DNA from: Phyllobacterium sp. YR531
GTDB taxonomy: Bacteria; Pseudomonadota; Alphaproteobacteria; Rhizobiales; Rhizobiaceae
DNA length: 64,000 nt
Direction of reading: 5' to 3'
Assembly (NCBI RefSeq): GCF_000282595.1
Contig: NZ_AKIZ01000013.1
Span: forward strand, 1-64,000
A model generated the notes under the pieces. That model searched no databases and had not been told where the DNA came from. It saw only the letters and a program-made list of their open reading frames with translations. The position numbers were made by a program, and so were the translations under genes. This document shows positions 86 to 63,474 of this stretch, piece after piece. Position 1 is the stretch's first letter. The number at the start of each line of letters is the position of its first letter.

Positions 86-93
86 TGCCTTGC

Positions 94-187
94 TCTAACG
101 GGGTGCCTGCATCAACAGGCTGAGAGGCTGGAATTATCCAGTCAACCCGCGGAACCTGATCCGGTTTGTACCGGCGGAGGGATTAGA
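94..187 (+). ncRNA. TPP riboswitch (THI element)
   Basis: The thi-box hallmarks are present in order: GGGGTGC near 100, GCTGAGA near 120-126, GGAACCTGATCC near 151-162 and ACCGGCGGAGGGA near 170-182. The P1 stem is closed by TCTAA (94-98) pairing with TTAGA (183-187). It lies 57 bp before the thiB start. In this class thiamine diphosphate binding lowers expression of the downstream gene, commonly in proteobacteria by hiding the ribosome binding site; here the mechanism is inferred. Confidence 0.95.
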
Positions 188-244
188 TGCGGCTTTAAAA
201 GCCGGCGCACCTATCCTTTTGAAATTCAACCTTAGGAGGCGCCT

Positions 245-49887: not shown

Positions 49888-50754
49888 ATGAGTATGCCCG
49901 GACTTGATCCAGATCTTTTGAAAGCCTTTGTCGTTGTCGCGGAGCAGCAATCCTTTACGCGGGCAGCAACAATGCTTAACCGGACACAATCCGCCGTCAG
50001 CATGCAGATAAAACGTCTGGAAGAACGGTTGGACGTTCAACTGTTCCACCGCACGACAATCAAAGTTGACCTGAGTACGGCTGGCGAAGAGCTTTTGGGT
50101 TATGCGCGGCGTATCCTCACGCTTAACGATGAGGCCGTCGGGCGACTGCGGGAACACAAGGTCGAGGGTGTTGTCCGTTTGGGTGTCATGGAAGACTATG
50201 GTGCCTATATCATTCCGCCACTTCTGACGAGTTTTGTTGCTGGCTATCCGATGATCCATATTGAGATGGAAACAGGTCTTACCTGTTCGATGCCCGAGCG
50301 GCTTGGCGATACATTCGATCTGGTAATAGCAATGCACCCTGAAGGGAAAGGCGAGGGTCAGTTTTTGCGCAGAGAACAAGCTGTATGGGCTGCCGGCCCT
50401 GATCGGTCGTCGGTAGAACTCAATCCGCTCCCTGTTGCGCTTTATCCGCAGGGATGCCTGTTCCGGAAATGGGCGATGGAGGCACTGGATAGTGTAAAGC
50501 GTCCTTGGCGGCTTGCCTTTGTCAGTCAGAGTCAGGCTGCCGTTGAATCCATAGTGGCTCAGGGACTCGCAGTGACCGTAGTGAAATCTGGCATGTTCCC
50601 GAAACGGTTGCGACGGCTTACAATCGAAGATGATATGCCAGATCTTCCTGGCGCTGATATCTGTCTGCACAGGGCAGCAAATATTTCGCCAGCAGCCATG
50701 CTTCTTGCAGATCATTTTGTGGAGGCACTAGCCACTGCAGATAGTAATGTCTGA
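49888..50754 (+). CDS. LysR-family transcriptional regulator
   Basis: About 288 residues. The HTH region includes LLKAFVVVAEQQSFTRAATM and QSAVSMQIKRLEERL, followed by the effector domain VRLGVMEDYGAYIIPPLL. The C-terminal half has FRKWAMEALDSV and a normal ending. ATG 49888 is preferred to the adjacent GTG at 49885. It is divergent to an EamA exporter which it probably controls. Confidence 0.9.
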   Translation: MSMPGLDPDLLKAFVVVAEQQSFTRAATMLNRTQSAVSMQIKRLEERLDVQLFHRTTIKVDLSTAGEELLGYARRILTLNDEAVGRLREHKVEGVVRLGVMEDYGAYIIPPLLTSFVAGYPMIHIEMETGLTCSMPERLGDTFDLVIAMHPEGKGEGQFLRREQAVWAAGPDRSSVELNPLPVALYPQGCLFRKWAMEALDSVKRPWRLAFVSQSQAAVESIVAQGLAVTVVKSGMFPKRLRRLTIEDDMPDLPGADICLHRAANISPAAMLLADHFVEALATADSNV

Positions 50755-50866
50755 CTTGCCAGAATTTCAGATGTCCTCCCACGGTCAACAGTGCCCTAGT
50801 CTCAGCAGGTTTTGCGTCCATTCCGCTTATGCTAGAAGGTTGGTATCGAAGGGGAGATGTTGAGCA

Positions 50867-53743
50867 TTGAAACGCATCGTCAGTCCGATTTTTGTGGGCC
50901 GGAAACGCGAACTTGACGAGTTATCAGCCGCATTCGCGGCAAGTGTCACAGGCCATCAGTCCACCACGTTCATCGGTGCTGAAGCGGGCACAGGCAAATC
51001 AAGGCTTATCCGCGAATATCTGGCCCGGGCTGGTGCCGATGCCCTGATCCTGAAAGGAGATTGCATCGAACAGCTCGACAATTTTCTGCCCTATGCCCCT
51101 TTTGCCGCGATCCTGAGGGAATTGGTTTCCATTCAAGGCGTCGCAAGAATCAGGACCTACCTCGGCAACAATGCAAACGAGGAAATGGCTTTTTTGCTGC
51201 CAGAGTTTGGGCCAATGCCCACAAACCTCGAGCCCGACTTTGTTCGAACCAGACTTTTTGAAACTTTACGCAAGCTTTTTGTCAGTTTGAGCCGTGAACA
51301 GCCGCTGATTGTGGTGATTGAAGATTTACATTGGGCTGATGCGGCCAGTTACGATTTGCTGCGATTTCTCATTGGACGTATGGAGAATGCCCGCATCCAT
51401 CTCGTTCTTTCGCACAGAACGAATGACACGAACTACCGACCAGCGATGAAATCCCTCCTTGCCGGCACAATGACTGGCGAGAGCGTTTCGCGGTTGACAC
51501 TTGGCCGACTGTCACGGCCTGAAGTCGCTCGTCAGTTGGAAGGTATCCTGGGGCGTTCACCGGACCCAGCGATTGTAAGCGAGGCCTATGCGCGCGCAGG
51601 CGGGATACCCCTCTATACGGAATGTTTGGTCGAACCGGACGGCAAGATCAGCATGAAGATGCCACGCGCATTGCAAAGCCTCCTGCTACAAGCGATAGAG
51701 GATTTGCCCGAACCTGTACAAAGAGTGTTACGTACGGCATCTGTGGGTCGCCAGCGTATCAGCCATAGATTGCTTACCAGAGTGGCTGGACTCAGCGACG
51801 AGGATTTGACGGATGCCATGCGTCTGGCATCCGCAACAGGCGCAGTCGTGAGCGATGCTGACGGCTACATGTTTCGGCACGCGCTGATTCAGGAAGCCAT
51901 ACGCAGTGACTTGCTTTCAGGTGAACAGGTCCAGTTCAATCGGGCTTTCGCGGAGGCTCTGACCAGCCACCCGGACACGCATCCGGATATCTGGCTTTCT
52001 GTTGCATTGACCACACATTGGGGAGCTGCCGGCTGTCATGATCAGGCTATACAAGCAGCTTGGCGGGGCTCGCGCGAAGCAGCACTCAGATTTGCATACG
52101 CGGTCCAATTGCAACTTCTGGAACAGGTGATCGAGTTATGGCCTAAAGTTAAATCCGCACAGCAGTTGCTCGGCGCAGAATATATTGATGTGCTTGAGCT
52201 GGCCGTAGATGCCGCCTGTTGGGCGGCCGAAGCTGAGCGCGGCCTGGATATGGTTGAGACGGCACTTGGCGAGCTGACAGCTGCGAGCGATGCGGAAAGG
52301 CGGGCAGCGCTTTTACTGCAGCGAGCCATAATGCGGCAGCAGGGTCTGCTGGATGGTGAAATTGATGACCTCCAAGTCGCTTTACAGCTCGCCACGGCCG
52401 TCACCCCAATCCGGGCAGAAGCTCTTGCTCAAGCTTTCCGTGCCTGCATGCTGCACCATCTCTATGAGCGAGCAAGAGAGTTGTCCTCAGAACTGTCGTC
52501 TGTGGCTGATCAATTGAAGCTGAAGGAATTTCAGATCGAGGCGCAGCTTACGACCGCGCATTTCGGTAAACATGCCGGTAGAAATATAATATTGGAGCTT
52601 CGTACAGCGATCGATGAGGCCAGATTAAGCGGTTTTGGCAGGTTGGAGATAATTGGCCTTGGCTTATTGCTTGAAGCGCTTGAGGAACAGGGCAACCGGA
52701 CCGAAGCATTGTCGGAAGGCAGATACGCTATCAAGCGCACTGCTGAATTTGGCCAGGCGCGCTACATGGGCGCGCGAATTGCTCAGCGACTCTTCGCTTC
52801 GCTGTTCTGCTCCGGTGAATGGGATGAGGCACTGGATATTCTTGACGAAGTTCTGATGCTGAATCCGGCACCGCTTGGTCGTATGCAACTTCTCCTCTGC
52901 AATGTTGAAATCGCGGTTGCCCGCGGTGAAAACGAAAAAGCCGAACAGTTACTTGCCGAACTGCAAACATTGCCCGATGGCCCCCAGCAAAGACCCGAGC
53001 GATCAATGCTGACGGCGCGGCTAAAGCTAGAATTGTGCTTTGCGACAGGCGATATGACCGCCGCCCACGACCTTATCAACATGGCGATTGGCGCGGCTGA
53101 CCCGCGTCTGCCTTTGCTTGTCTGGCCACTGCTCTCTTCCAGCATGCGCCTTTGCATTGATTCCAACGCGCCTGCATCCTTGCGCAAGGCAGTCGAGAAA
53201 CTGGCGATGGATACTCCGCAGCCCGGGCCCGTTGAAATGGCATATAGCCTGATCTTGCAAGCAGAGAGCGCCCGATCCCATAACTCCGATGCGAATCTTT
53301 GGGATGCTGCCGCCAATGCTTTCTCGGATGTCGGATGCCCCTATACTCAAGCCTATGCACTGTTCCGGTCTGGAACTGCACATGCTGTAAAGAACAAGTT
53401 TGACGGGGCGGTACGTCTGCAAAAGGCATTGAACCTTGCCTCAAGCTTGAGAGCTACGCCGCTGCTTGCAAGGATAGTATCCGTTGCAAAACGCGCCCGC
53501 ATCAAACTCAATGATGGTCAGGAAGTATTTCTCCCCAACCCCGGCCATGGCCTGACTTCCCGTGAGCGTGAAGTGCTCCAACTCGTTTCCGCTGGCCTGA
53601 GCAACAGGGAGATCGCAGCGCAGCTATTCATCTCCACAAAGACAGCCAGTGTTCACGTGTCAAACATTCTGAGCAAGCTCAATGTGGCTAATCGCGGATT
53701 GGCAACTGCCATGGCTCATCGGCTTCATCTGGTTGATGCCTAA
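50867..53743 (+). CDS. Large STAND-type LuxR-family regulator (AAA ATPase plus HTH)
   Basis: 958-residue signal-transduction ATPase. The N-terminal AAA_16 ATPase has [15 protein letters not shown], Walker [10 protein letters not shown] (37-45) and Walker [13 protein letters not shown] (147-158). The middle (about 370-870) is alpha-helical and resembles the TPR-type sensor of MalT/LAL regulators. The C-terminus carries a LuxR HTH from about residue 895 ([20 protein letters not shown], then [20 protein letters not shown]). The start is TTG with GGGGAG ten bases upstream, forced by an in-frame stop just before. Ligand and targets unknown. Confidence 0.9.
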
Positions 53744-53863
53744 TTTCAAACCGCAATCAAAATCTCAATAAACATAAAAACTAAGGCAATTGCCTGATGT
53801 GCTCTACCCTACCTTAGACCAAGTATCAGCAATATTGGTACGGTGGGATGAGGCGCAATAATC

Positions 53864-54472
53864 ATGACAGATTTGAAAAGCGATATGGCAAACAGCAATC
53901 GCATAATTCAATCATATGAAGAATATGCAAAGGAATATAGCGAGATTGTAGGGACAGAAGTCTCACAAAGAACAGCCGAAACGCTACAGAGAATGGTTAG
54001 TTTTACAGGGCTTGGCGCTCATATGCTTGAAGTCGGTTCCGGGCCGGGTATTGAAGCAGATTATCTGGAAAGTCTGGGCGCTGTCGTTCGTCGTACAGAC
54101 GCCACACGCGCATTTCTCGCAATGCAGGTGGAGCGCGGTAAAAATGTTGATTTGCTCAATATCATATCTGATAAGCTTGGCGGGCCTTATGACGGTGTTC
54201 TTGCCCTTTGTGTCCTTATCCACGTAGACCGCGACCACACAGCCAATGTTCTGAAAAAGATCCGCAATGCGCTCCGGCCGGGCGGTGTTTTTCTGGTTTC
54301 ACTTCGTGAAGGGCAAGGTGAAACCGGCGGTGGCTTCAATACTATTTTTTGGGAATACGACGAGTTCATTGCCCATTTGGCTGCTGCTGACCTCCATGTA
54401 AGGTGGCATGACCGAAACACTGATCATGAGGGCGAAGTCTGGCTTACATTTCTAGCGGAGCGGCAGCTATGA
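53864..54472 (+). CDS. Class I SAM-dependent methyltransferase
   Basis: 202-residue Rossmann methyltransferase. Motif I is MLEVGSGPGIEADYLESLG near residue 55, an acidic post-I follows in RRTDATRAF, and motif IV-like ALCVLIHVDRD with LRPGGVFLVSLREG mark the catalytic core. Substrate unknown. It is 120 bp after the STAND regulator and overlaps the exporter gene as ATGA, so both are co-translated. An internal ATG at 53885 is possible. Confidence 0.87.
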   Translation: MTDLKSDMANSNRIIQSYEEYAKEYSEIVGTEVSQRTAETLQRMVSFTGLGAHMLEVGSGPGIEADYLESLGAVVRRTDATRAFLAMQVERGKNVDLLNIISDKLGGPYDGVLALCVLIHVDRDHTANVLKKIRNALRPGGVFLVSLREGQGETGGGFNTIFWEYDEFIAHLAAADLHVRWHDRNTDHEGEVWLTFLAERQL

Positions 54473-55344
54473 GCGCACGCGGACTTATCCTCTTTATCGC
54501 ATTGAGTATCTTTTGGGGCATCCCATACCTCATGATCAAGGTAGCGGTATTGGAACTGTCAGTACCATTTCTGGTGTGTGCACGATCTATCGTCGGCTCA
54601 CTGGTACTTTTACCCTTCGCCGTTTACACGGGAGGGTTCCAGCAGGTTTCAAAAGCCTGGATTGCTGTCGTCAGTTTTACTGTCATCGAGATGATTATCC
54701 CATGGGGGCTTCTAGCCCATGCGGAAATAAACCTGACCAGTTCAACAACAGGATTACTGATCGCCATTACCCCGGTTATTGCAATTGTGATTGCAAGAAT
54801 GACTGGCGAAACCAGTCGGCTTTCGCCGCGACGATTGGTTGGATTGGCCATAGGATTTGCCGGTGTTCTGACCTTGGCTGCTCCTGAGCTGGGAGGCGAC
54901 TTCTGGTCAATTGCTCAAGTGGTTTTGGCCGCTGCGTGCTATGCAGCAGGATCAGTCATTGCTGCACGCTGGCTGAACAATGTTCCCCCGCTGCCGATGA
55001 CTGCCGTCTGTCTCATTCTTTGCGCACTTGCCTATCTGCCTCCAGCGTTAAATGCATGGCCGGTAGGTCCAATTTCGATGAATGCAATTTCAGCAGTCGC
55101 CGGACTTGGAACCATCTGCACAGCGATTGCTTTTTTCACCTTCTTTCTTCTGGTCCGGGAAATCGGTTCTGAACGTGCCGTGATCATTACCTATGTTGCT
55201 CCAGCAATCTCCATCGCGGCCGGTGTATTGGTCTTGGGAGAACCGCTGACACAAAGGATGATTGCAGCCTTCGCTCTGATTATCTGCGGATCATATATTG
55301 CAACCTTATCGGCTTCCGCGGCGAAGTCATCCGTCACCGCGTGA
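54469..55344 (+). CDS. EamA/DMT-family transporter, second copy
   Basis: 291 residues with ten TM helices in two repeats (SIFWGIPYLMIKVAVLELSV at the start, TTGLLIAITPVIAIVIARMTGE in the first repeat, ERAVIITYVAPAISIAAGVLVLG in the second, each shown in part). It overlaps the methyltransferase by 4 bp. The pairing suggests export of a methylated compound, an inference only. Confidence 0.88.
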   Translation: MSARGLILFIALSIFWGIPYLMIKVAVLELSVPFLVCARSIVGSLVLLPFAVYTGGFQQVSKAWIAVVSFTVIEMIIPWGLLAHAEINLTSSTTGLLIAITPVIAIVIARMTGETSRLSPRRLVGLAIGFAGVLTLAAPELGGDFWSIAQVVLAAACYAAGSVIAARWLNNVPPLPMTAVCLILCALAYLPPALNAWPVGPISMNAISAVAGLGTICTAIAFFTFFLLVREIGSERAVIITYVAPAISIAAGVLVLGEPLTQRMIAAFALIICGSYIATLSASAAKSSVTA

Positions 55345-55400
55345 GCCTTGCAATCGGGGCTCAGTCTCAATTGGCGGCCCATAAATGGGGTTAAGTCAGT

Positions 55401-56273
55401 ATGAATGAAGCAAAAAAGCATGCTGGACGAAGCCAGTCCAACGGAGAACAGCTGCTCGTTGGAGATGGTGTCGAGCTTTGCGTCGAGACCTTTGGAGACG
55501 CGGCTGACCCTGCCATTCTTCTGATCCATGGAGCATCTGCTTCCATGATTTGGTGGGAAACCGATTTGTGTCGGATGATTGCGGATGGCGGGCGATTTGT
55601 CATTCGATACGACAATCGCGATACCGGTCTTTCGACGAGCTACCCTACAGGCAATCCGGGCTACGCTCTAAGTGACATGGCATCAGATGCAATTCGAATT
55701 CTCGACTGGCTGGAAGTACGCAGTGCCCATATCGTGGGCAGATCGTTAGGCGCAGCTATTGCATTGGCAATTGCTATTGATCATCCGAAAAGAGCCTTAT
55801 CAATAACATTCGTTTCCGCAACAACGGGAGATGATGATCTGCCCGCCATGACCAGCGAGTTCGAAGAAGCCACCTCCAAAATTCCGGACTTTTCAAATCT
55901 CGCAGCACTGGAAAATCATATTGTGGAGGTGTTGCGTATTTTCTCCGGTAATTCACCACATTTTGATGAGGTTGAAATGCGATCCTTGTCGGCGCTGGAC
56001 ATTGCCAGAACAAGAAATATGCAGTCCACGCTTGCCAACCACTTTCTGATTGATTTCGACGCTCCGCGCAACGGCGAGCTTTCCGATCTCTCCATTCCTG
56101 CACTGATCGTGCATGGGGAAAATGATCCGGTGTTTCCGCTGCCTCATGGTCGAGCACTGAGCGACGCGGTACCCGGCTCCAGATTGCTGGTACTGCCTGA
56201 TACCGGGCACGACATTCCTCGGCAGCACTGGGAGATATTTGTCACCGCCCTTACAGACCACACCAAAATATAG
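55401..56273 (+). CDS. Alpha/beta-hydrolase fold esterase
   Basis: 290 residues. The nucleophile is Ser115 in VGRSLGAAI, the acid Asp lies in HGENDPVFP near residue 245 and the His in TGHDIPR near 271, with the oxyanion region LIHGASASM. No signal peptide is visible. The fold is that of lactonase and aclacinomycin methylesterase (RdmC)-like enzymes. It follows the exporter by 56 bp and may share its transcript. Confidence 0.87.
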   Translation: MNEAKKHAGRSQSNGEQLLVGDGVELCVETFGDAADPAILLIHGASASMIWWETDLCRMIADGGRFVIRYDNRDTGLSTSYPTGNPGYALSDMASDAIRILDWLEVRSAHIVGRSLGAAIALAIAIDHPKRALSITFVSATTGDDDLPAMTSEFEEATSKIPDFSNLAALENHIVEVLRIFSGNSPHFDEVEMRSLSALDIARTRNMQSTLANHFLIDFDAPRNGELSDLSIPALIVHGENDPVFPLPHGRALSDAVPGSRLLVLPDTGHDIPRQHWEIFVTALTDHTKI

Positions 56274-56302
56274 GCTTTTGCACCGTCCAGAGGAATGTCC
56301 GG

Positions 56303-56632
56303 CTAACTCTCCGGATCAGTATCCAGTACATTAGCTGGTCCAAAGCAAACCTCGTAATCCGGATCTTCGACGAACACCTGCAGGTCATTGTCTACACGAC
56401 CCCAATAGCGCAAAGATTCGCCTTGACGCTCGACCCTCGTGATGATGACCCAAAATCGCTCACCTGTGTCGGCGATTTCCAAACCAACTTTTGCAGACTG
56501 GCCGGCTTGCAGGCGCTCACGTTGTTCTTGCGGTGGCATCCAGAATTGGTCTGGATAATCCTTGTTGCGCTGAACCCCGTCGATAAGTATTCCTTCCGCA
56601 AGATGATAGGCGCTCCCTCGCACTCCACTCAT
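56303..56632 (-). CDS. Hypothetical protein downstream of the orphan atpB
   Basis: About 109 residues starting MSGVRGSAYHLAEGILIDGV, with a hydrophilic core and an acidic end (VLDTDPES). No family recognised. An earlier in-frame start at 56722 would overlap the atpB-like gene by 23 bp; 56632 is chosen because AAAGGG precedes it and the extra N-terminal part is antisense-like. It is probably co-transcribed with the atpB-like gene and converges on the hydrolase. Confidence 0.65.
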   Translation of the reverse strand: MSGVRGSAYHLAEGILIDGVQRNKDYPDQFWMPPQEQRERLQAGQSAKVGLEIADTGERFWVIITRVERQGESLRYWGRVDNDLQVFVEDPDYEVCFGPANVLDTDPES

Positions 56633-56699
56633 CGGATAAACCCTTTTTACTTGTTTCCGGCTGCTCGCTTCCACCACACAATTGGTAGCCACCACTATA

Positions 56700-57446
56700 T
56701 CAATGTCCCGGGTGCAGCGCATCGTTGAGATACATGCAGGTCAGCATTGTAAACACATATGCCTGAATACCTGCCATCAAGAATTCCAGCGCGGTGATTG
56801 CAACTGTCATGAACATCGGAGCAATCGACCCAACCACACCCAAGGCTCCCATTTTTCCGAGTGACACCGCAAACCCCGCGAAAACCTTCAATGTTATGTG
56901 ACCTGCAAGCATCACCGCAAACAGACGAACCGAGTGGCTTATGGGCCGTGAAATATAGGAAATGATCTCAATTGGAATAATGATGGGTAGAAGGAGGACA
57001 GGAATACCCGCGGGCATGAACAGACGGAGAAAACACATGCCATGCTTGAAAATGCCATAAAGGGTTACAGTTCCGAACACGATCATTGCCAATCCGAAAG
57101 TGACGATAATCTGCGCCGTTACGGTGAAGGCATACGGAAACATTCCGATCAGATTGGCGACAAGAATGAACATGAAAAGTGTAAAAACCAGCGGAAAGAA
57201 CCGCATTCCACGTTCCCCGGCATTGTCTCGCAAGGTTTTTGAGACGAACTCGTAGAGAAGTTCCGCACTGGACTGCCACCGGCCTGGAATGATGCGTCGA
57301 TAGCTTGTGGCCAGCATCAAGTAAGCACCGGCAAGCATTATCGTCAGCACCATGTGAGCAGACGAGTTTGTAAAGCTGATGTCCATACCTGAAAAATTGA
57401 TGTCGATTAGCGACTTGATCTCGAATTGCTCAATAGGTCCGGCCAT
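56700..57446 (-). CDS. Orphan, diverged F0F1 ATP synthase subunit a (AtpB paralogue)
   Basis: 248-residue membrane protein clearly homologous to AtpB over its whole length. The essential arginine is Arg174 in [13 protein letters not shown], but the following, normally conserved Asn is Val178. [17 protein letters not shown] and [10 protein letters not shown] complete the C-terminal helices. AAGGAT precedes the ATG. Unusually, no other atp gene is present on either side; the housekeeping atpIBEF operon must be elsewhere. Whether it enters an F0 complex, replaces the main subunit under some condition, or does something else is unknown. Confidence 0.9.
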
Positions 57447-57717
57447 GGGATATCCTTTGACTTGCTGCAGCCACGGCTGAGTTTTCGCGTGACATGGCAG
57501 TGCATAAGCATTGCGTGCCGCGCGAATGTCGCGTGTCCGATATGATTTGCGGATTGGGAAGCTTGTTCAATTCGGCGGCCTCATTTTGATCTCGATGGCG
57601 AGATTCTGGGGCCGTCCCCGAAACGATTCATGGCGCAGGTCGTCCTGCGCGGTGGCTTCTTAGCTGCATCATTCGCCAATGGCAACAACCTTTGAACCAT
57701 CTAGCTTGAAGGTGCGG
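57447..57717. other. Non-coding region upstream of the orphan atpB
   Basis: About 270 bp between atpB and the LysR gene. Short minus-strand reading pieces appear, broken by stops and frame changes; I cannot match them to AtpI or any other protein, so they are either chance or decayed coding sequence. It must hold the atpB promoter. Confidence 0.4.
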
Positions 57718-58647
57718 TCAGACAGCTGTCAGGGGGGATGAATTTGTTGGATGGGTGTCTTTTGCAGCTTCTCGCATGATCCAGTCAAAGAATGTTTTGG
57801 TTGACCAGCCGATAGTGCGGCCCTTTGGCAGCACAACCCAGTGAGCTGCACGATAGGATGTGATTACTTCCGGAAATGGTTGAACGAGGCGTCCAGTGCG
57901 AAGATGCTCACTTATCAGCAGATTTCGACCTATCGCAACACCGTGCCCCTCCAGCGCCGCCTGCAATGTAATATTGTAGTCCGTTAGTTGTATCGTATGT
58001 GCTTTTCTGAAATCCAATCCGACTGCCTCAGCCCAGACTTCCCAATCAATCGGCTGCTTTGCCATGAGCAGGGTGTGGTGCATCAAATCTTGCGGATGAG
58101 TAAATTTCGATCCATCCCCAAGCAGTAACGGACTGACAACTGGGCTAAGCTGCTCCGCCATTAAAAGATGAGCATCGCTTCCGTCCCACGGTCCCTCCCC
58201 GTAGCGGATAGCAATGTCGATATTACCCGATGCAAAGTCCGTGACGCGAAGCGTTGGTTCAAGGTCGAGATCAATATCCGGATGTTCCGCATGGAATCCG
58301 GCAAGCCGGGACACCAGCCAGTTGGCCGCGAACGATGGTAGCAGGCTGACGTGAACCTTATTGCGCCCTGAACTAACCCGTACATCGTGTGTTGCGTCGG
58401 CGATAAGCCGGAAAGCCTGCTTCGTTTTCTTATAATAAGCTTCCCCCTCGTCTGTCAGGGCAATACTCCTGGCACTGCGTATGAAAAGACTGACCCCCAA
58501 TGTTTCTTCCAGCAAGCGAATGTGATGGCTGACCGCGCTCTGCGTGATTAACAGCTCCTCTCCTGCTTTTCGGAAGCTTAGCAGCCTGCTGACGGCCTCA
58601 AATGCTCGAAGCGACTGAAGCGGGGGAAGTGTGGAAGATGTTCGCAT
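57718..58647 (-). CDS. LysR-family regulator, GcvA-like
   Basis: 309 residues. LPPLQSLRAFEAVSRLLSFR at the N-terminus and TQSAVSHHIRLLEETLGVSL are the GcvA-type helix-turn-helix; the C-terminal effector domain includes FASGNIDIAIRYGEGPWDG. It is divergent from the RidA gene, 145 bp away, and very likely controls the RidA-PLP-SDR genes. Confidence 0.9.
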   Translation of the reverse strand: MRTSSTLPPLQSLRAFEAVSRLLSFRKAGEELLITQSAVSHHIRLLEETLGVSLFIRSARSIALTDEGEAYYKKTKQAFRLIADATHDVRVSSGRNKVHVSLLPSFAANWLVSRLAGFHAEHPDIDLDLEPTLRVTDFASGNIDIAIRYGEGPWDGSDAHLLMAEQLSPVVSPLLLGDGSKFTHPQDLMHHTLLMAKQPIDWEVWAEAVGLDFRKAHTIQLTDYNITLQAALEGHGVAIGRNLLISEHLRTGRLVQPFPEVITSYRAAHWVVLPKGRTIGWSTKTFFDWIMREAAKDTHPTNSSPLTAV

Positions 58648-58677
58648 GGGCTGCGACTCTCATTGTGGATGTTCAAA

Positions 58678-58744
58678 TATCCAATAGCGCGGGTTCGAGA
58701 CATTAGCCAGTTAGATCACACCAGAGCGCATTTTGAATTGGATA
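58678..58744. promoter_or_regulatory. Widely spaced inverted repeat in the LysR/RidA divergent region
   Basis: TATCCAAT (58678-58685) and ATTGGATA (58737-58744) are perfect 8-bp inverted copies 51 bp apart. Their placement near both promoters fits a LysR regulator bound at recognition and activation sites. Confidence 0.45.
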
Positions 58745-58792
58745 AGCTACTTTCTGCCGTTCATCATCTATCTCCGTAAAAAGGAGATAACG

Positions 58793-59269
58793 ATGTCCGA
58801 GACCATTGCAACAAAGCTCTCTTCACTGGGATATAAACTGCCAGCGGCATCCGCGCCCGCAGCAAATTACGTTTCTACCGTGCGGACAGGAAACCTCCTC
58901 AGCATATCGGGACAAATAAGCCGTAACGACGACGGCACTGCATTTTCAGGCACAGTGGGCGCCAGCGTTACAGCCGAGGAAGGGCGGAAAGCCGCCGAAA
59001 TTGCTGCCATAAACGTTCTCTCGCAAATTGCCGGGGCGACGGATGGAAGCCTTGCTGCTGTAAGCCGGATTGTGCGTCTCGGTGTGTTCATTGCAGCAAC
59101 GCCGGATTTCAATCGTCATTCTGAAGTGGCCAATGGAGCATCGGATTTGTTCGTTGCTGTTTTCGGCGATGCAGGTCGTCACAGCCGTGCCGCCATCGGC
59201 GTCAGCTCCCTACCGGTTGGTGCCGCCGTGGAAATTGACGCTCTTGTCGAACTTGCGGAAGGTGTCTGA
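58793..59269 (+). CDS. RidA-family protein
   Basis: 158-residue RidA/YjgF-type trimer subunit that hydrolyses reactive enamine/imine intermediates from PLP enzymes. The binding Arg is in SRAAIGVSSLPVGAAVEID, with GNLLSISGQISRNDDG upstream, a pattern of the YoaB-like Rid groups rather than classical RidA. An AAGGAGATAACG site precedes ATG 58793; the frame continues 20 codons upstream without that support. Its stop overlaps the next start (TGATG). Confidence 0.9.
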   Translation: MSETIATKLSSLGYKLPAASAPAANYVSTVRTGNLLSISGQISRNDDGTAFSGTVGASVTAEEGRKAAEIAAINVLSQIAGATDGSLAAVSRIVRLGVFIAATPDFNRHSEVANGASDLFVAVFGDAGRHSRAAIGVSSLPVGAAVEIDALVELAEGV

Positions 59270-60459
59270 TGAACTCGCTGAACATTGAATATTTACGTTC
59301 CGAGGCACCAGGCTGTGCGGTTGGAATGCATTTCAATCATGCAGGCTCATCCCTGCCTTCGAGGGCAGTGATTGAAGCCATTACCGACCATCTGCATCGC
59401 GAAATGCTGTATGGCCCAATGGAAGCTGCAAACAATGTCAGCGCCTTGCTCGATGAGGTAAGAATCGACGCTGCCGCAATCATTAATGCTCTTCCTCAAG
59501 AGATCGCATTCTGCAGCAGCGGCTCTGCCGCATGGGGTGCGGCTTTTGCTGCACTACCGCCATTGCGGCATGGTGACCGAATATTGGTCGGACGTCACGA
59601 ATGGGGCGGGAACCTTGCAGCGATTTATGCAGCGGCACAAAGTGCAGGTGCCAATGTCGAAACCATCCCTTGCAAAGAAGATGGCAGTGTTGACGCGTCC
59701 GCTCTAGCTGAAATGATCAATGATCGGGTTCGCTTGGTGGCCTTAACCTGGCTGCCTGCAAATGGGGGGCTTATCAATGATGCAGCAGCCATCGGGAGGG
59801 TAACGCGTGCCGCGGGCGTCCCTTATTTCATTGATGCAGCGCAGGCTCTCGGGCAGTTGCCTATCGATGTTTCCATAATAGGCTGTGACGTTTTGAAGGC
59901 CTCATGCAGGAAATTCCTTCGTGGCCCGCGTGGTACGGCTATTCTCTACATCCGCAAGGATTTCCTCGACAAGCTGAATCCAGTCAGTTTTGATGTCCTG
60001 TCCGCGCCTTTGCACGATGGCATGCCCAAGGTCAGATCCGATGCCCGCAAGTTTGAAACAAGCGAGCGCTCCATTGCCTTGGTGCTGGGCCTCGGTATTG
60101 CCCTAAAGCAGGCGCGGACATTGGACATAAGCGTACTTCGCCAACGTATCGCAAGCCTCTCGGAAGCACTGCGGCAAGAACTCAGCGCCATCAATGGCGT
60201 CTCAGTGCTTGACCTCGGTACTGAAAAATCCGGTCTCGTCTCCTTCAGTATCAGAGATGTCGGTCCTCAGATAATCCGCGATAGGCTGGCCGCCCAGCGC
60301 ATTACCATAGGCTATAATGGCGTGCCCTATACACCGCTCGACATGAAGGCACGCGGCCTCAATGAAATTGCCCGTGCCTCCGTCAGTTATCTGAACACTG
60401 TTGAAGAAATCACAGCACTGAGCTCGGCCGTCGCCGTCATTGCAAGTAACCCGGCTTGA
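59269..60459 (+). CDS. Class V aminotransferase-fold PLP-dependent enzyme
   Basis: 396-residue PLP enzyme related to cysteine desulfurase and isopenicillin-N epimerase folds. The Schiff-base lysine is Lys215 in ASCRKFLRGPRGT, the pyridine-nitrogen Asp is Asp189 in YFIDAAQALGQ, and FNHAGSSLPS is the N-terminal substrate region. No desulfurase Cys loop is obvious. Coupled to RidA (1-bp overlap), it likely releases an unstable imine, as a lyase or aminotransferase. Actual substrate unknown. Confidence 0.88.
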   Translation: MNSLNIEYLRSEAPGCAVGMHFNHAGSSLPSRAVIEAITDHLHREMLYGPMEAANNVSALLDEVRIDAAAIINALPQEIAFCSSGSAAWGAAFAALPPLRHGDRILVGRHEWGGNLAAIYAAAQSAGANVETIPCKEDGSVDASALAEMINDRVRLVALTWLPANGGLINDAAAIGRVTRAAGVPYFIDAAQALGQLPIDVSIIGCDVLKASCRKFLRGPRGTAILYIRKDFLDKLNPVSFDVLSAPLHDGMPKVRSDARKFETSERSIALVLGLGIALKQARTLDISVLRQRIASLSEALRQELSAINGVSVLDLGTEKSGLVSFSIRDVGPQIIRDRLAAQRITIGYNGVPYTPLDMKARGLNEIARASVSYLNTVEEITALSSAVAVIASNPA

Positions 60460-60490
60460 TCTTCGCCAAGAATAAACCACAGGAAACAAT

Positions 60491-61273
60491 ATGAATCTCG
60501 GCATCAGCGGAAAGCGCGCGATAGTTTGCGCAAGTTCAAAAGGTCTGGGCAAAGGCGTGGCTGAGAAGCTCGCTGAAGCGGGTGTTCATCTTACGCTCAA
60601 CGGGCGAACGGAAGAAACCCTTCATGCAACCGCAACTCAGATCGTCGAGAAGTATCATGTGCATGTTCAGATTGTAGCTGCAGATGTGACCACTGAGGAA
60701 GGGCGGCGGAAATTATTGGCCGCTGAACCGCAACCGGACATCCTGATTAACAATGCGGGTGGACCGCCCGCCGGGCTTTGGTCCGATTGGGACGAGAATG
60801 ACTGGCATAAGGCAGTGAATGCCAACATGCTGACCCCTATTCTTTTGATGAAAGCGGTATTGCCGGGGATGATCTCTCGCAAGTGGGGTCGGGTCGTGAA
60901 CATCACCTCGGGCTCGGTCAAATCACCCATACCACAGCTTGGGCTTTCCAATGCAGCACGCGGTGGTTTGACAGGTTTTGTTGCGGGAACAGCGCGGCAA
61001 GTCGCCAGACACGGTGTTATCATCAATAATCTGCTGCCGGGATCGCATGAGACAGACCGCATCCACCAATTGATGCAAAGCAATGCGGCTCGCGAAGGTA
61101 TTTCCGTTGAACAGGCGAAAGCGGCAGCTCATGCCGAAAACCCCACGGGCCGTTTTGGAACAACAGGTGAATTCGGTGCCGCCGGAGCGTTTTTATGCAG
61201 TCAGTATTCAGGATATATTGTTGGGCAGAACCTGCTGCTGGATGGAGGAGCTTTCAACTCAACACTCGGCTAG
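60491..61273 (+). CDS. Atypical SDR-family protein lacking the catalytic Tyr-Lys
   Basis: 260-residue Rossmann protein. Nucleotide binding is CASSKGLGKG near residue 13, with NNAG in the middle and DGG near the C-terminus. The expected YxxxK active site reads LSNAAR, so Tyr is Leu or Ser and Lys is Arg, while Ser is kept in NITSGSVKS. This matches the BKR-3-like divergent SDRs. AGGAAAC precedes the ATG and the gene is 31 bp after the PLP gene. It may be a reductase with another mechanism or a lyase. Confidence 0.88.
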   Translation: MNLGISGKRAIVCASSKGLGKGVAEKLAEAGVHLTLNGRTEETLHATATQIVEKYHVHVQIVAADVTTEEGRRKLLAAEPQPDILINNAGGPPAGLWSDWDENDWHKAVNANMLTPILLMKAVLPGMISRKWGRVVNITSGSVKSPIPQLGLSNAARGGLTGFVAGTARQVARHGVIINNLLPGSHETDRIHQLMQSNAAREGISVEQAKAAAHAENPTGRFGTTGEFGAAGAFLCSQYSGYIVGQNLLLDGGAFNSTLG

Positions 61274-61276
61274 GTG

Positions 61277-61459
61277 CTATTCTTCGTCGTCGCAGATACC
61301 GAGGTTTTCCAGCTCTTTTTGTCCAGCAGCCAGCGCCTCATCCTCGGTATCATGCGGTCCCATCAAGACACCGGTTTCACCATCGACAACGACGACATAG
61401 TACCATTTGCCATCGCTTTTCTTGTCGGTTTGCACACAGCATCTTTGATCATTGGACAT
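61277..61459 (-). CDS. Small acidic hypothetical protein
   Basis: 60 residues, MSNDQRCCVQTDKKSDGKWY onward, acidic C-terminus (ENLGICDDEE) and a repeated Asp/Glu and Gly composition that looks genuinely coding. No strong ribosome site is visible. It converges on the SDR gene with 3 bp between stops. Function unknown; the CC pair and a C-terminal Cys could bind metal, which is speculation. Confidence 0.6.
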   Translation of the reverse strand: MSNDQRCCVQTDKKSDGKWYYVVVVDGETGVLMGPHDTEDEALAAGQKELENLGICDDEE

Positions 61460-61525
61460 GCGGCATTTTCATTCATATCGAGGTAAAATGCAAACTCCGC
61501 AGCGTGCTTTGACTGGAGAAAAACC

Positions 61526-61813
61526 TTAGTAAACCGAGCGGTCTCCATAGATGCCGCTGGGATCATACATTGCGAACATTTCCAGCTCTACGGCGCTGAA
61601 AAAAGCACCCACCTGCTCGTCCTGTTCATCCTCGGAAAGGCCTATCTTTGCAAGATGCTCGAACAGACCATCGGCTATACTGTTCCGGTAAGCTTCAGCA
61701 TGGCGTTCGTTTTTTTCCCTTAGCTTGGACGCTACTTCGCGGACCGTAGCCAACCGCTTCGTCAGCGGAAAAGGGATAACCTGACAACTCACCGCAGATA
61801 CAACTTTTTGCAT
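61526..61813 (-). CDS. DUF6074-like small protein
   Basis: 95 residues. SCQVIPFPLTKRLATVREVA near the start recalls the short family typical of Rhizobiales genomes and mobile regions, followed by an alpha-helical part (KLREKNERHAEAYRN). The function is unknown. It lies 66 bp upstream of the 61277-61459 gene on the same strand, so they may be co-expressed. Confidence 0.65.
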   Translation of the reverse strand: MQKVVSAVSCQVIPFPLTKRLATVREVASKLREKNERHAEAYRNSIADGLFEHLAKIGLSEDEQDEQVGAFFSAVELEMFAMYDPSGIYGDRSVY

Positions 61814-61934
61814 GCTCGCTTATTCCCGAACGGCATTTGCCGCGTTTGCATTTGATTCGGGTGCAAGGATACGGGCAAGGTTCCTAACAATTTGTTCAGC
61901 ATAATTTTTCGGCAAAAACATAAATGATTTCAAT

Positions 61935-62009
61935 CGTTACGTAACAATAGAGGACCCTCTGGACCGTAACAGATTTGTGCGTAACACCCGCTGAATCTTG
62001 CCCGTTACG
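61935..62009. repeat. Cluster of CGTTACG/CGTAAC sites
   Basis: Five half-sites in 75 bp: the perfect palindrome GTTACGTAAC (61936-61945), CGTAAC at 61965-61970 and 61980-61985, and CGTTACG at 62003-62009. They lie between the divergent 61813 and 62071 genes. Probably operators for an unidentified regulator; iteron-like function is less likely at this spacing. Confidence 0.55.
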
Positions 62010-62022
62010 GCATGCGGGCTTA

Positions 62023-62040
62023 TCACTTGGGGGTAAGTGA
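62023..62040. promoter_or_regulatory. Hairpin before the 62071 gene
   Basis: TCACTT-GGGGGT-AAGTGA is a perfect 6-bp stem 31 bp ahead of the start codon, in the probable leader. Confidence 0.35.
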
Positions 62041-62070
62041 TTCGTTTGTTAACGGCGTAGAGATTCACAT

Positions 62071-62517
62071 ATGGCACTCAGTAACGCAGAACGGCAGAGA
62101 AGGCACCGCGAACGCCAGAAGCAAAAACTGGCAGCCGCAGCCCCTGACATCGCTATGCAGTATGAGAACGTCGGGGCTGATCTGCGCGAAAAATTCTATG
62201 CCCTTATCGATGCGGAAAACGCAGCCAGACAACGCGCGGCGGCTGGAAAACCGGTCGAAATCACAGATTTCCGGCGCGTGATTCTTGATATTGCCCTCAA
62301 CGAAAATCAATCGTTGATAGCAAATGCTGCACGCATGATTCTCCTGAAGGCCCTTTCAATGGGCGAAAGTTCAGAGAACGAGATTTTGGAAGCACAGCGT
62401 CAAAAATCTGCGAGAATTGGCGTCAAGCCTGAAACTTCTGCAATCTCTGAAAATCGCGTCCTGAAAGAACAGGTAACCCCGCTTCCGCATTATCTGCGTG
62501 TTCCCAATTTCGGCTGA
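62071..62517 (+). CDS. Hypothetical protein with a basic N-terminus
   Basis: 148 residues. The N-terminal ALSNAERQRRHRERQKQK is strongly basic and resembles openings of small proteins in phage or integrated regions; the middle is helical (ADLREKFYALIDAENAARQ). Possible DNA binding by the basic helix is an inference. It sits beside repeated GTTACG sites and follows no strong Shine-Dalgarno. No family assigned. Confidence 0.65.
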   Translation: MALSNAERQRRHRERQKQKLAAAAPDIAMQYENVGADLREKFYALIDAENAARQRAAAGKPVEITDFRRVILDIALNENQSLIANAARMILLKALSMGESSENEILEAQRQKSARIGVKPETSAISENRVLKEQVTPLPHYLRVPNFG

Positions 62518-62572
62518 TCATCAGATATCGCCTGAGACCTGTTGAAGCAATCAAAGCATTGAGGACGTTGCC

Positions 62573-63424
62573 ATGACCCATCCCGCTTTATCAAAATCCA
62601 GCGTTGCAGTGGTCACGGGTGGAGCATCCGGAATCGGTCTGGCAGCAGCAAAGCGTTTTGCTGGTTTGGGCATGAAAGTTGCCATCGCGGATATTGGTGG
62701 AGACCGACTGGAAGAGGCACACCGTCAGGTTGCTGACACAAACGGTGCCTTGGCCGAAAACATCATTTCTGTCGCCACAGACGTTACGCAGGATGATGAT
62801 TTGCAAAATTTGAAGCAGGTCGTAGATCAGAGGTTTGGCGGGACTGACGTTTTGATGAACAATGCCGGCATACAACCCGGAAGCAGCGTGTTCGATTCCG
62901 GTAATTGGAACCGGATCATCGCGACAAACCTTATGGCCATTGTCCATGGCTGCCAGATATTTGGTCCATCGATGATCGCGCGCAGAACGCCGGGCCTGAT
63001 CATCAATACCGGCTCGAAGCAAGGCATCACCACGCCGCCCGGAGACCCAGCCTATAATGTCTCGAAATCGGGCGTAAAGACCTTTACTGAAGCGCTGCAA
63101 CACGAGTTACGTAACACGAAAGACTGCCATGTAACTGCGCATCTTTTCATTCCCGGCTTTGTCTACACAGCCCTGACGAAGGGGAGCCGGACTGAAAAGC
63201 CGGCTGGCGCATGGACATCTGAACAGACTGTCGATTTCCTTTTGGAAAGCATATCAGCCGGCGATTTTTATATACTTTGTCCGGACAATGATGTTGTAAG
63301 AAGTTTAGATGAGAAACGTATACTTTGGGCTGCCGACGATATCATCCAAAATCGGCCACCCCTTTCGCGTTGGCATCCGGACTTTGAAGCTGAATTCTCC
63401 GACTTTTTGAAACAACCACACTAA
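62573..63424 (+). CDS. SDR-family NAD(P)-dependent oxidoreductase
   Basis: 283 residues with a normal active site: TGGASGIG near residue 16, NNAG, Ser in NTGSKQG and YNVSK near residue 162. GAGGAC lies upstream of the ATG. It ends 50 bp before an MHS-family transporter gene and probably shares its transcript. Substrate unknown; C-terminal extension ([16 protein letters not shown]) is seen in several oxidoreductases of this group. Confidence 0.9.
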
Positions 63425-63474
63425 TTGCGATTTACCACCTATTAGCATCCAAATTATTTGACAAAGGAATTTTC

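What the first reader, a model, noticed from the sequence alone, without database searches (positions are those of the whole stretch)
56700..57446. Stand-alone, diverged ATP synthase subunit a with Asn-to-Val next to the essential Arg
The protein is a full-length AtpB homologue but has no atpI, atpE or atpF beside it. In [13 protein letters not shown] the essential arginine is kept while the neighbouring Asn, normally RLFANMLAGH, is Val. Position next to a tiny uncharacterised gene and a LysR regulator is unlike any atp operon. It may be an alternative a subunit altering H+ coupling, or a redundant copy under decay.
Basis: partly seen in the sequence, partly recalled or inferred. Interest (0 to 1): 0.72.

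Follow-up and report, generated by a model that had tools for sequence, protein, structure and literature searches.

The report
Guanidine-switched spare ATP synthase subunit
A plant-associated bacterium carries a second copy of the proton-channel part of its ATP synthase, placed behind an RNA switch of a guanidine-sensing class and changed at one key spot, which suggests that guanidine poisons this motor and that the cell can swap in a tolerant part.

Summary
In detail: window 56700-57446 (-) encodes an intact 248-residue ATP synthase subunit a outside any atp operon, with Val in place of the Asn four residues after the essential Arg. It is not a decaying copy and not peculiar to this genome. 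It belongs to one clade of stand-alone AtpB proteins in Hyphomicrobiales: V in 86 of 86 rows, N in 44 of 44 housekeeping rows, with purifying selection across the clade. The element precedes 76 of 80 named relatives and 6 of 6 second copies among 59 genomes, own included, and none of 45 housekeeping atpB loci. In some relatives a SugE-type exporter, a ChaA-like antiporter or a lone MrpF nearby has its own element. Best explanation: a guanidine-induced a subunit that joins the ordinary c-ring and keeps Fo working when guanidinium, a mimic of the stator arginine, is present. The regulation is close to certain, incorporation likely, tolerance inferred and untested. Main rival: a deliberately slowed Fo. 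No report was found in the open-access papers searched.

The parts
56700..57446 (-). atpB2: stand-alone ATP synthase subunit a, 248 aa
   Evidence: ORF; Pfam and NCBIfam; predicted model (mean pLDDT 72.2) matches yeast subunit a 6b2z, TM 0.82
56925..56927 (-). codon of the essential stator arginine (R174; E. coli R210, yeast R176)
   Evidence: translation; yeast alignment; E. coli number recalled and as used in PMC7251095
56913..56915 (-). codon of V178, invariant Val of the stand-alone clade; Asn in housekeeping AtpB (E. coli N214, yeast N180)
   Evidence: V in 86 of 86 rows against N in 44 of 44; yeast alignment
57453..57458 (-). AAAGGA, likely ribosome binding site of atpB2
   Evidence: sequence; an AGG block before the ATG is conserved in 24 long leaders
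57607..57651 (-). Guanidine-II (mini-ykkC) riboswitch aptamer, same strand, 160 nt upstream of atpB2
   Evidence: Rfam RF01068 39.8 bits, gathering 32; model R1 60 bits, but that model includes this sequence; covariation in relatives
57633..57650 (-). P1 hairpin of the riboswitch, loop ACGA
   Evidence: sequence; 5 of 7 P1 pairs show changes on both sides in 42 leaders
57608..57619 (-). P2 hairpin of the riboswitch, loop ACGG
   Evidence: sequence; all P2 cells paired in 42 leaders, one of 4 pairs with changes on both sides
57589..57604 (-). possible short hairpin just after the aptamer (ATCTC..GAGAT), partly conserved in the long-leader group; role unknown
   Evidence: sequence; leader alignment (24 loci)

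Best explanation
The gene is an inducible replacement subunit a of the one F1Fo ATP synthase. When guanidinium (or a small guanidine derivative) accumulates, the Guanidine-II riboswitch turns on atpB2. The product takes the place of the housekeeping a subunit against the ordinary c-ring. The housekeeping Fo is impaired because guanidinium is chemically the head of the stator arginine and can sit at the a/c interface near that Arg, the neighbouring Asn and the c-ring carboxylate. In the spare subunit that Asn is Val, and further sites around the Arg and the helix-6 Glu and Gln are changed, so guanidinium binds less and proton-driven rotation goes on. A SugE-like exporter, encoded in the same genome behind a weak element of the same class, removes the ion. 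Shown: an intact second a subunit, the riboswitch match, their linkage across a family, purifying selection, type-specific sites. Inferred from family knowledge: ON regulation by guanidine, assembly with the ordinary c-ring. Inferred and untested: that guanidinium harms Fo, and that V178 confers tolerance.
For: Riboswitch at 57607-57651 by Rfam. It precedes 76 of 80 named stand-alone atpB loci (misses L048, L078, L086, L089), 6 of 6 second copies among 59 genomes and a plasmid copy; among 45 distinct housekeeping loci the best score is 15.3 bits. 99.1% of 462 cells paired in 42 leaders, 40 cells changed on both sides; ACG of both loops invariant in these 42, as in the ACGR loops that bind the ligand (PMC5486947, passages). 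V178 in 86 of 86 rows against N in 44 of 44; R174, H183, E221 and Q228 kept; 4 of 5 type-specific sites lie within 4 residues of these, P=0.013 among 100 conserved sites, a test chosen after seeing the sites. One c-subunit match in the genome. dN/dS 0.198. SugE-like exporters behind atpB2 with their own Guanidine-II hits, some weak. Literature: aAsn214 required for proton movement, with an ion/water-like density beside it (PMC7251095, passages); arginine mimics, guanidines among them, discussed as Fo inhibitors (PMC8873251, passages).
Against: No data that guanidinium at cell levels inhibits Fo. [quoted passage not shown] The Asn is called functionally essential in E. coli, so Val might simply slow proton flow. 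The leader-folding test was inconclusive: of 25 short leaders scored, 6 gained and 4 lost more than 0.1 in ribosome-site openness when the aptamer was forced; of 8 long leaders scored, none gained and 2 lost more than 0.1. In the window the aptamer lies 160 nt from the start codon, so its expression platform is unknown. Four relatives keep the gene without a detectable element. Most genomes of the family sample (266 of 297) have no match of this type, so it is dispensable.
Confidence: 0.55

Rival explanations
1. AtpB2 is a brake. Val at the Asn position slows proton transfer into the c-ring, so that under guanidine stress less proton motive force flows through ATP synthase and more is left for H+-coupled guanidinium exporters such as SugE/Gdx.
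For: The Asn lies in the proton chain from the periplasmic half-channel to the c-ring (PMC10532555, PMC7251095, passages); antiporter genes in some relatives have elements of the same class.
Against: The other proton-path residues checked are kept and sites nearby changed together, which looks like retuning rather than damage. Lowering expression of the atp operon would brake more simply.
Confidence: 0.2
2. Guanidine is only an indicator of another guanidino toxin (canavanine, hydroxyguanidine, agmatine or an alkylguanidine), and AtpB2 protects Fo against that compound.
For: Guanidine riboswitches (classes I and IV) are proposed as canavanine indicators in front of CtdA (PMC10018355, passages); Guanidine-II also binds methylguanidine, aminoguanidine and agmatine (PMC5486947, passages); alkylguanidines are potent mitochondrial inhibitors (PMC5609876, passages).
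Against: Linkage to SugE-type exporters and a ChaA-like antiporter points to the ion itself. Canavanine genes were not searched for, and the neighbour clusters were only partly identified.
Confidence: 0.12
3. AtpB2 lets Fo tolerate changed membrane energetics in general (pH, cation load); protection at the a/c interface plays no part.
For: Elements of the same class lead a ChaA-like antiporter and a lone MrpF in Agrobacterium-type loci.
Against: The riboswitch class senses guanidine, and stand-alone AtpB is tied to it in 76 of 80 loci.
Confidence: 0.08
4. Redundant or decaying duplicate without function.
For: The copy of one same-genus genome (G001) is split over two frames, and L096 appears frame-shifted near its start.
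Against: One clade in many genera, dN/dS 0.198, V178 invariant, riboswitch kept.
Confidence: 0.03

Closest known systems
F1Fo ATP synthase subunit a (AtpB; PF00119, NF004482)
   Same: Full-length match, essential Arg, channel His, Glu and Gln, predicted fold like yeast subunit a.
   Different: Stand-alone gene, Val instead of the conserved Asn, own riboswitch.
Guanidine-II (mini-ykkC) riboswitch, RF01068
   Same: Two GC-rich hairpins with ACGR loops, score above gathering, covariation in relatives.
   Different: Targets named in the passages seen are efflux proteins and guanidine-modifying enzymes (PMC5486947, PMC12186494); here it is an ATP synthase subunit.
N-ATPase / alternate F1Fo ATPase (altF1_A, TIGR03306)
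   Same: A second a subunit in a genome.
   Different: 79.8 bits against a cut-off of 302.1; one c-subunit match in the genome.
Na+-I riboswitch control of Na+-type ATP synthase genes (PMC9971707, passages)
   Same: A riboswitch for a cation in front of ATP synthase genes.
   Different: There the sensed ion is the coupling ion of a whole complex; here a toxic ion is read in front of one spare subunit.
Inducible drug-tolerant spare target genes (recalled, e.g. second gyrB or ileS copies; no call)
   Same: A changed second copy of the presumed target beside an intact housekeeping copy, with expression tied to the stressor.
   Different: Here the swapped part is one subunit of a membrane motor and the switch is an RNA; tolerance is not shown.
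CtdA under guanidine riboswitches (PMC10018355, passages)
   Same: Stand-alone protection protein linked to guanidine riboswitches.
   Different: Acts on mischarged tRNA-Arg, not on Fo; classes I and IV, not II.

Membership tests
ATP synthase subunit a (AtpB) | Profile score above the curated cut-off over the full length | tested here: met
   216.8 bits vs 33.9; 356.8 vs 225
ATP synthase subunit a (AtpB) | Essential stator Arg plus channel His, Glu and Gln | tested here: met
   R174, H183, E221, Q228
ATP synthase subunit a (AtpB) | Asn four residues after the Arg (usual in the family, not part of its definition) | tested here: not met
   Val in 86 of 86 rows of the clade, Asn in 44 of 44 housekeeping rows
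ATP synthase subunit a (AtpB) | Gene inside an atp operon (usual, not part of the definition) | tested here: not met
   tblastn of the own housekeeping neighbours (ORFs of 148, 216 and 161 aa, and the c subunit) finds none of them in 80 stand-alone loci or in window 50700-63446
ATP synthase subunit a (AtpB) | Assembly with the c-ring and proton translocation | not testable with these tools
   Only one c-subunit match in the genome, so partnership with it is inferred
Guanidine-II riboswitch (RF01068) | Covariance-model score above gathering | tested here: met
   39.8 vs 32 bits
Guanidine-II riboswitch (RF01068) | Two hairpins with ACGR loops and compensatory changes | tested here: met
   A6: 99.1% of 462 cells paired, 6 pairs and 40 cells with changes on both sides in 42 leaders
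Guanidine-II riboswitch (RF01068) | Aptamer folding exposes the ribosome binding site | tested here: inconclusive
   Short leaders: 26 given, 25 scored, 6 up and 4 down by more than 0.1; long leaders: 10 given, 8 scored, 0 up and 2 down
Guanidine-II riboswitch (RF01068) | Binds guanidine and raises expression | not testable with these tools
   Needs a reporter or binding test
N-ATPase (alternate F1Fo) | Subunit a above the altF1_A cut-off and a second operon with its own c subunit | tested here: not met
   79.8 vs 302.1 bits; one PF00137 match
Inducible spare-target tolerance (functional analogue) | Intact housekeeping copy plus changed copy behind a sensor of the stressor | tested here: met
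   the sensing itself is inferred from the riboswitch class
Inducible spare-target tolerance (functional analogue) | The changed copy tolerates the stressor | not testable with these tools
   Needs enzyme or growth tests

The most novel reading that the evidence does not exclude
Free guanidinium is a poison of ion-translocating membrane machines because it imitates the arginine at their gates, and bacteria carry riboswitch-controlled, guanidinium-proof spare parts for them: subunit a of ATP synthase (AtpB2) in many Hyphomicrobiales, and perhaps subunit F of the Mrp antiporter in Agrobacterium-type loci. This would be a class of RNA-switched spare-subunit defences and would name a target of guanidine toxicity.
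Probability: 0.4. Interest if true: 0.92.

Novelty: new variant of a known kind. Interest (0 to 1): 0.82.

Why it matters
Four classes of riboswitch sense guanidine (PMC11018352, abstract passage), but what guanidine damages in bacteria is unclear; a 2025 review suggests protein denaturation and misfolding (PMC12186494, passages). A natural, widespread link between a guanidine switch and the a subunit of ATP synthase points to a specific target that can be tested directly. It also offers a natural a subunit that is kept by selection with a changed residue at a site called essential in E. coli, which bears on how protons pass the stator arginine and on inhibitors that mimic it.

Tried and rejected
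Decay: rejected for this copy and the clade. N-ATPase or second operon: rejected. Link to the neighbouring 139-aa ORF and the LysR gene: of the window's 12.7-kb neighbourhood only the LysR shared a cluster with other loci (L090 and L101), and the 139-aa ORF has no Pfam or NCBIfam match. Not pursued further.

Expression platform: my folding test did not show a general release of the ribosome site. A sigma-70 pattern scan found none in 56200-57900. Open-frame extension upstream of the ATG (288-aa frame): the conserved start MAGPIEQF and relatives such as L041, L043, L047 and L051 whose frame starts there argue against it. No Guanidine-I element at E 0.001 or better was found in the own genome (150 of 194 candidates scored); classes III and IV were not searched genome-wide.

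The order-wide samples (160 genomes each) added little: few Rhizobiaceae were in them and the weaker matches were not listed. Literature searches found no paper joining a guanidine riboswitch with atpB or an ATP synthase subunit: 17 and 23 returned nothing; both papers of 21 were opened by passages and are unrelated; of the 4 papers of 49 one and of the 9 papers of 78 two were opened by passages, the rest seen as listings. (42 papers on the Guanidine-II riboswitch) was seen as a listing of 20, of which 3 were opened by passages. The library is open-access only. The Guanidine-II validation paper (PMC5340285) and the canavanine-lyase paper (PMC9533460) are not held, and the gene list in the supplement of PMC2864571 could not be looked at, so an earlier listing of atpB there is possible.

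Biases: the collection search used FAVMLAGH as one of six peptide patterns, so V in 80 of 80 there is partly by design. The later profile search of 297 genomes was built from such sequences but scores the full length and splits cleanly: 31 genomes at 443-478 bits, next match 401. 30 of these 31 were fetched; 30 of 30 have V and the element, but 24 of the 30 repeat named loci over 360 nt and one is the window itself, so five are new. The 86 rows include near-identical and identical copies (for example L010 and L091, L030 and L058, L016 and L103), so they are not independent. Model R1 was built from seven sequences that include the window. Rows dropped from the housekeeping rows: L023 (my pattern did not find its motif) and L032 (same gene as L002). 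L096 was left out of dN/dS and of the distance count. Rfam at its own gathering score was met upstream of atpB in 18 of 26 distinct loci tested; one search was filled on purpose with the four misses and weak scorers.

Full report
WHAT IS THERE. The ORF at 56700-57446 (-) is intact, 248 aa, ATG start, and scores far above the cut-offs for subunit a. The genome (4,997,302 bases, 41 contigs, 99.91% complete) holds two AtpB matches: this one and a housekeeping copy at C19:41486-42118 beside the only c-subunit match of the genome. An AlphaFold2 model from 35 aligned relatives is of moderate confidence (mean pLDDT 72.2, pTM 0.62) and its best match in the PDB is yeast subunit a (6b2z, TM 0.82).

WHO HAS IT. 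A search of named genomes kept the best 80 of 186 confirmed places, from Agrobacterium, Rhizobium, Shinella, Ensifer, Aminobacter, Mesorhizobium, Phyllobacterium, Pseudochrobactrum, Brucella/Ochrobactrum, Bosea, Kaistia, Tardiphaga, Reyranella and others. The housekeeping neighbours of the own genome (ORFs of 148, 216 and 161 aa around atpB, and the c subunit) find no match in any of the 80 loci or in window 50700-63446 (tblastn). In a sample of 297 family genomes, 31 have a match of this type at 443-478 bits; all other matches are at 401 bits or less. In a tree of 80 rows (36 stand-alone, 44 housekeeping) the stand-alone rows are one side of one branch (SH-aLRT 96, quick method). The window copy groups with Agrobacterium-type copies (79% identity) and with one same-genus copy (L120), and apart from the three other same-genus copies in the tree, which suggests transfer between genera. 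A related copy (69.9% identity) lies on a 477-kb Phyllobacterium plasmid.

THE RIBOSWITCH. Rfam finds one Guanidine-II aptamer in the window, at 57607-57651 (-), same strand, 160 nt before the start codon. It is the only one over the cut-off found in the genome (150 of 300 candidates were scored). A model built from seven such sequences finds the element ahead of atpB2, on its strand, in 76 of 80 named loci (the four without are L048, L078, L086, L089). In 75 of these 76 (L096 left out, its start being unclear) the gap to the start codon is 14-22 nt in 27 and 95-264 nt in 48. In 59 genomes, own included, searched with both families, all 6 with a second atpB have the element just upstream of it. 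In a control of 51 loci the 5 stand-alone copies score 46.7-51.4 bits; among the 45 distinct housekeeping loci (46 records, as L002 and L032 hold the same one) the best score is 15.3 bits. On 42 leaders the named structure is paired in 99.1% of 462 cells, with 40 cells changed on both sides against a shuffled mean of 10.1. The loop letters ACG are invariant in both hairpins of these 42.

THE PROTEIN CHANGES. Between 86 stand-alone and 44 housekeeping rows, V178 stands against N in every row; H171 (L in 39, H in 5 of the housekeeping rows), M224, I227 and I155 are further type-specific sites outside the N-terminus. R174, H183, E221 and Q228 are kept. Four of the five type-specific sites lie within four residues of these (25 of 100 sites conserved in both groups do; P = 0.013; the test was chosen after seeing the sites). 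In yeast numbering V178 falls on N180, and the Paracoccus structure 5dn6 also has Asn there (the species name is recalled). In E. coli the Asn is N214, described as required for proton translocation, with a weak ion- or water-like density beside it that the authors call highly speculative (PMC7251095, passages), and as a moving link towards the c-ring carboxylate in simulations (PMC10532555, passages). Selection is purifying: median dN/dS 0.198 over 1,427 stand-alone pairs against 0.175 over 363 housekeeping pairs with dS between 0.15 and 1.2; the window copy is too far from the five relatives compared with it for a ratio (dN 0.13-0.16, dS saturated or 2.4).

THE COMPANY. In 14 of 80 loci a SugE-type SMR gene lies near atpB2 (cluster 2); its representative just passes the SugE cut-off (126.6 vs 126). 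Of 43 further hits of the R1 model in these loci (some as weak as E 0.57), 13 lead this cluster and 8 lead a cluster whose member in L036 is a ChaA-like antiporter (PF01699 74.5 bits; ChaA model 185.9, under its cut-off of 505); 13 had no ORF by my crude call. In three loci an element on the opposite strand leads an MrpF (in L036 PF04066, K+/H+ antiporter subunit F, 106.7 bits vs 93). In L036 its neighbours are a LysR regulator, an FAD-dependent hydroxylase and the antiporter, so it is a lone Mrp subunit there. The window's genome has a SugE-like gene (L155; 122.2 bits over a 93-residue piece against a cut-off of 126) with a sub-threshold Guanidine-II (25.3 bits vs 32) whose two loops are ACGA and ACGG.

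HOW IT MOST LIKELY WORKS. Guanidine-II elements are thought to act as ON switches for detoxification genes (PMC5486947, passages). A second a subunit without its own c, b or F1 genes beside it most likely acts with the ordinary complex. Guanidinium is the head group of the stator arginine. Inhibitors that mimic this arginine are discussed for the mycobacterial enzyme; the authors add that steric hindrance selects which guanidine mimics bind, and their own acylguanidine interacted only weakly (PMC8873251, passages). Guanidine and alkylguanidines were studied on mitochondrial energy transfer as early as 1963 (title in the reference list of PMC5609876; that paper itself was not seen). Plants, legume seeds and seedlings among them, contain guanidine (PMC11018352, passages), which fits the hosts of these bacteria. 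I therefore read atpB2 as a guanidinium-tolerant replacement a subunit (0.55). The regulation I hold at about 0.95, incorporation into Fo at about 0.85; tolerance is the uncertain step, with a proton-saving brake as main rival.

LIMITS. No expression, binding or enzyme data exist here. The expression platform is unresolved. Four relatives lack a detectable element, and two copies look broken (G001, L096), so the gene can be lost. Prior listing of atpB among mini-ykkC targets in supplements that I could not open is possible.

Noticed in passing
L036:3766-4056 (-), element at L036:4146-4191 (-); also L038, L054: An MrpF/PhaF (K+/H+ antiporter subunit F) led by a Guanidine-II element; in L036 no other Mrp gene lies beside it. 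A possible second spare subunit of an ion-translocating complex.
   Followed up: partly
L036:4346-5518 (+) and cluster members in L034, L038, L040, L044, L046, L050, L054: ChaA-like Na_Ca_ex antiporter led by its own Guanidine-II hit (weak in L040 and L050) upstream of atpB2.
   Followed up: partly
L036:5585-5899 (+), element at L036:5534-5579: 105-aa ORF without Pfam match led by another Guanidine-II element, between the antiporter and atpB2.
   Followed up: no
L155:1801-1857 (-) (own genome C14): Sub-threshold Guanidine-II ahead of a SugE-like gene; in four same-genus genomes (L147, L148, L149, L152) an element over the cut-off leads a similar SMR-like ORF (Pfam checked for L147 only).
   Followed up: yes
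G001:C14:259627-260258: Second atpB of a same-genus genome split over two frames, riboswitch still present.
   Followed up: partly
L048, L078, L086, L089: Stand-alone atpB kept while the Guanidine-II element is not detectable; L086 and L089 are Pseudochrobactrum and the L078 leader resembles theirs, so perhaps one loss in these three.
   Followed up: partly
L078 record title: Contig labelled Bacillus subtilis carries a Pseudochrobactrum-like locus; probably mislabelled or contaminated.
   Followed up: no
window 89-199 (+): TPP riboswitch (74.4 bits) at the start of the window.
   Followed up: no
window 56303-56722 (-): 139-aa ORF overlapping the end of atpB2 by 23 nt; no Pfam or NCBIfam match.
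   Followed up: no
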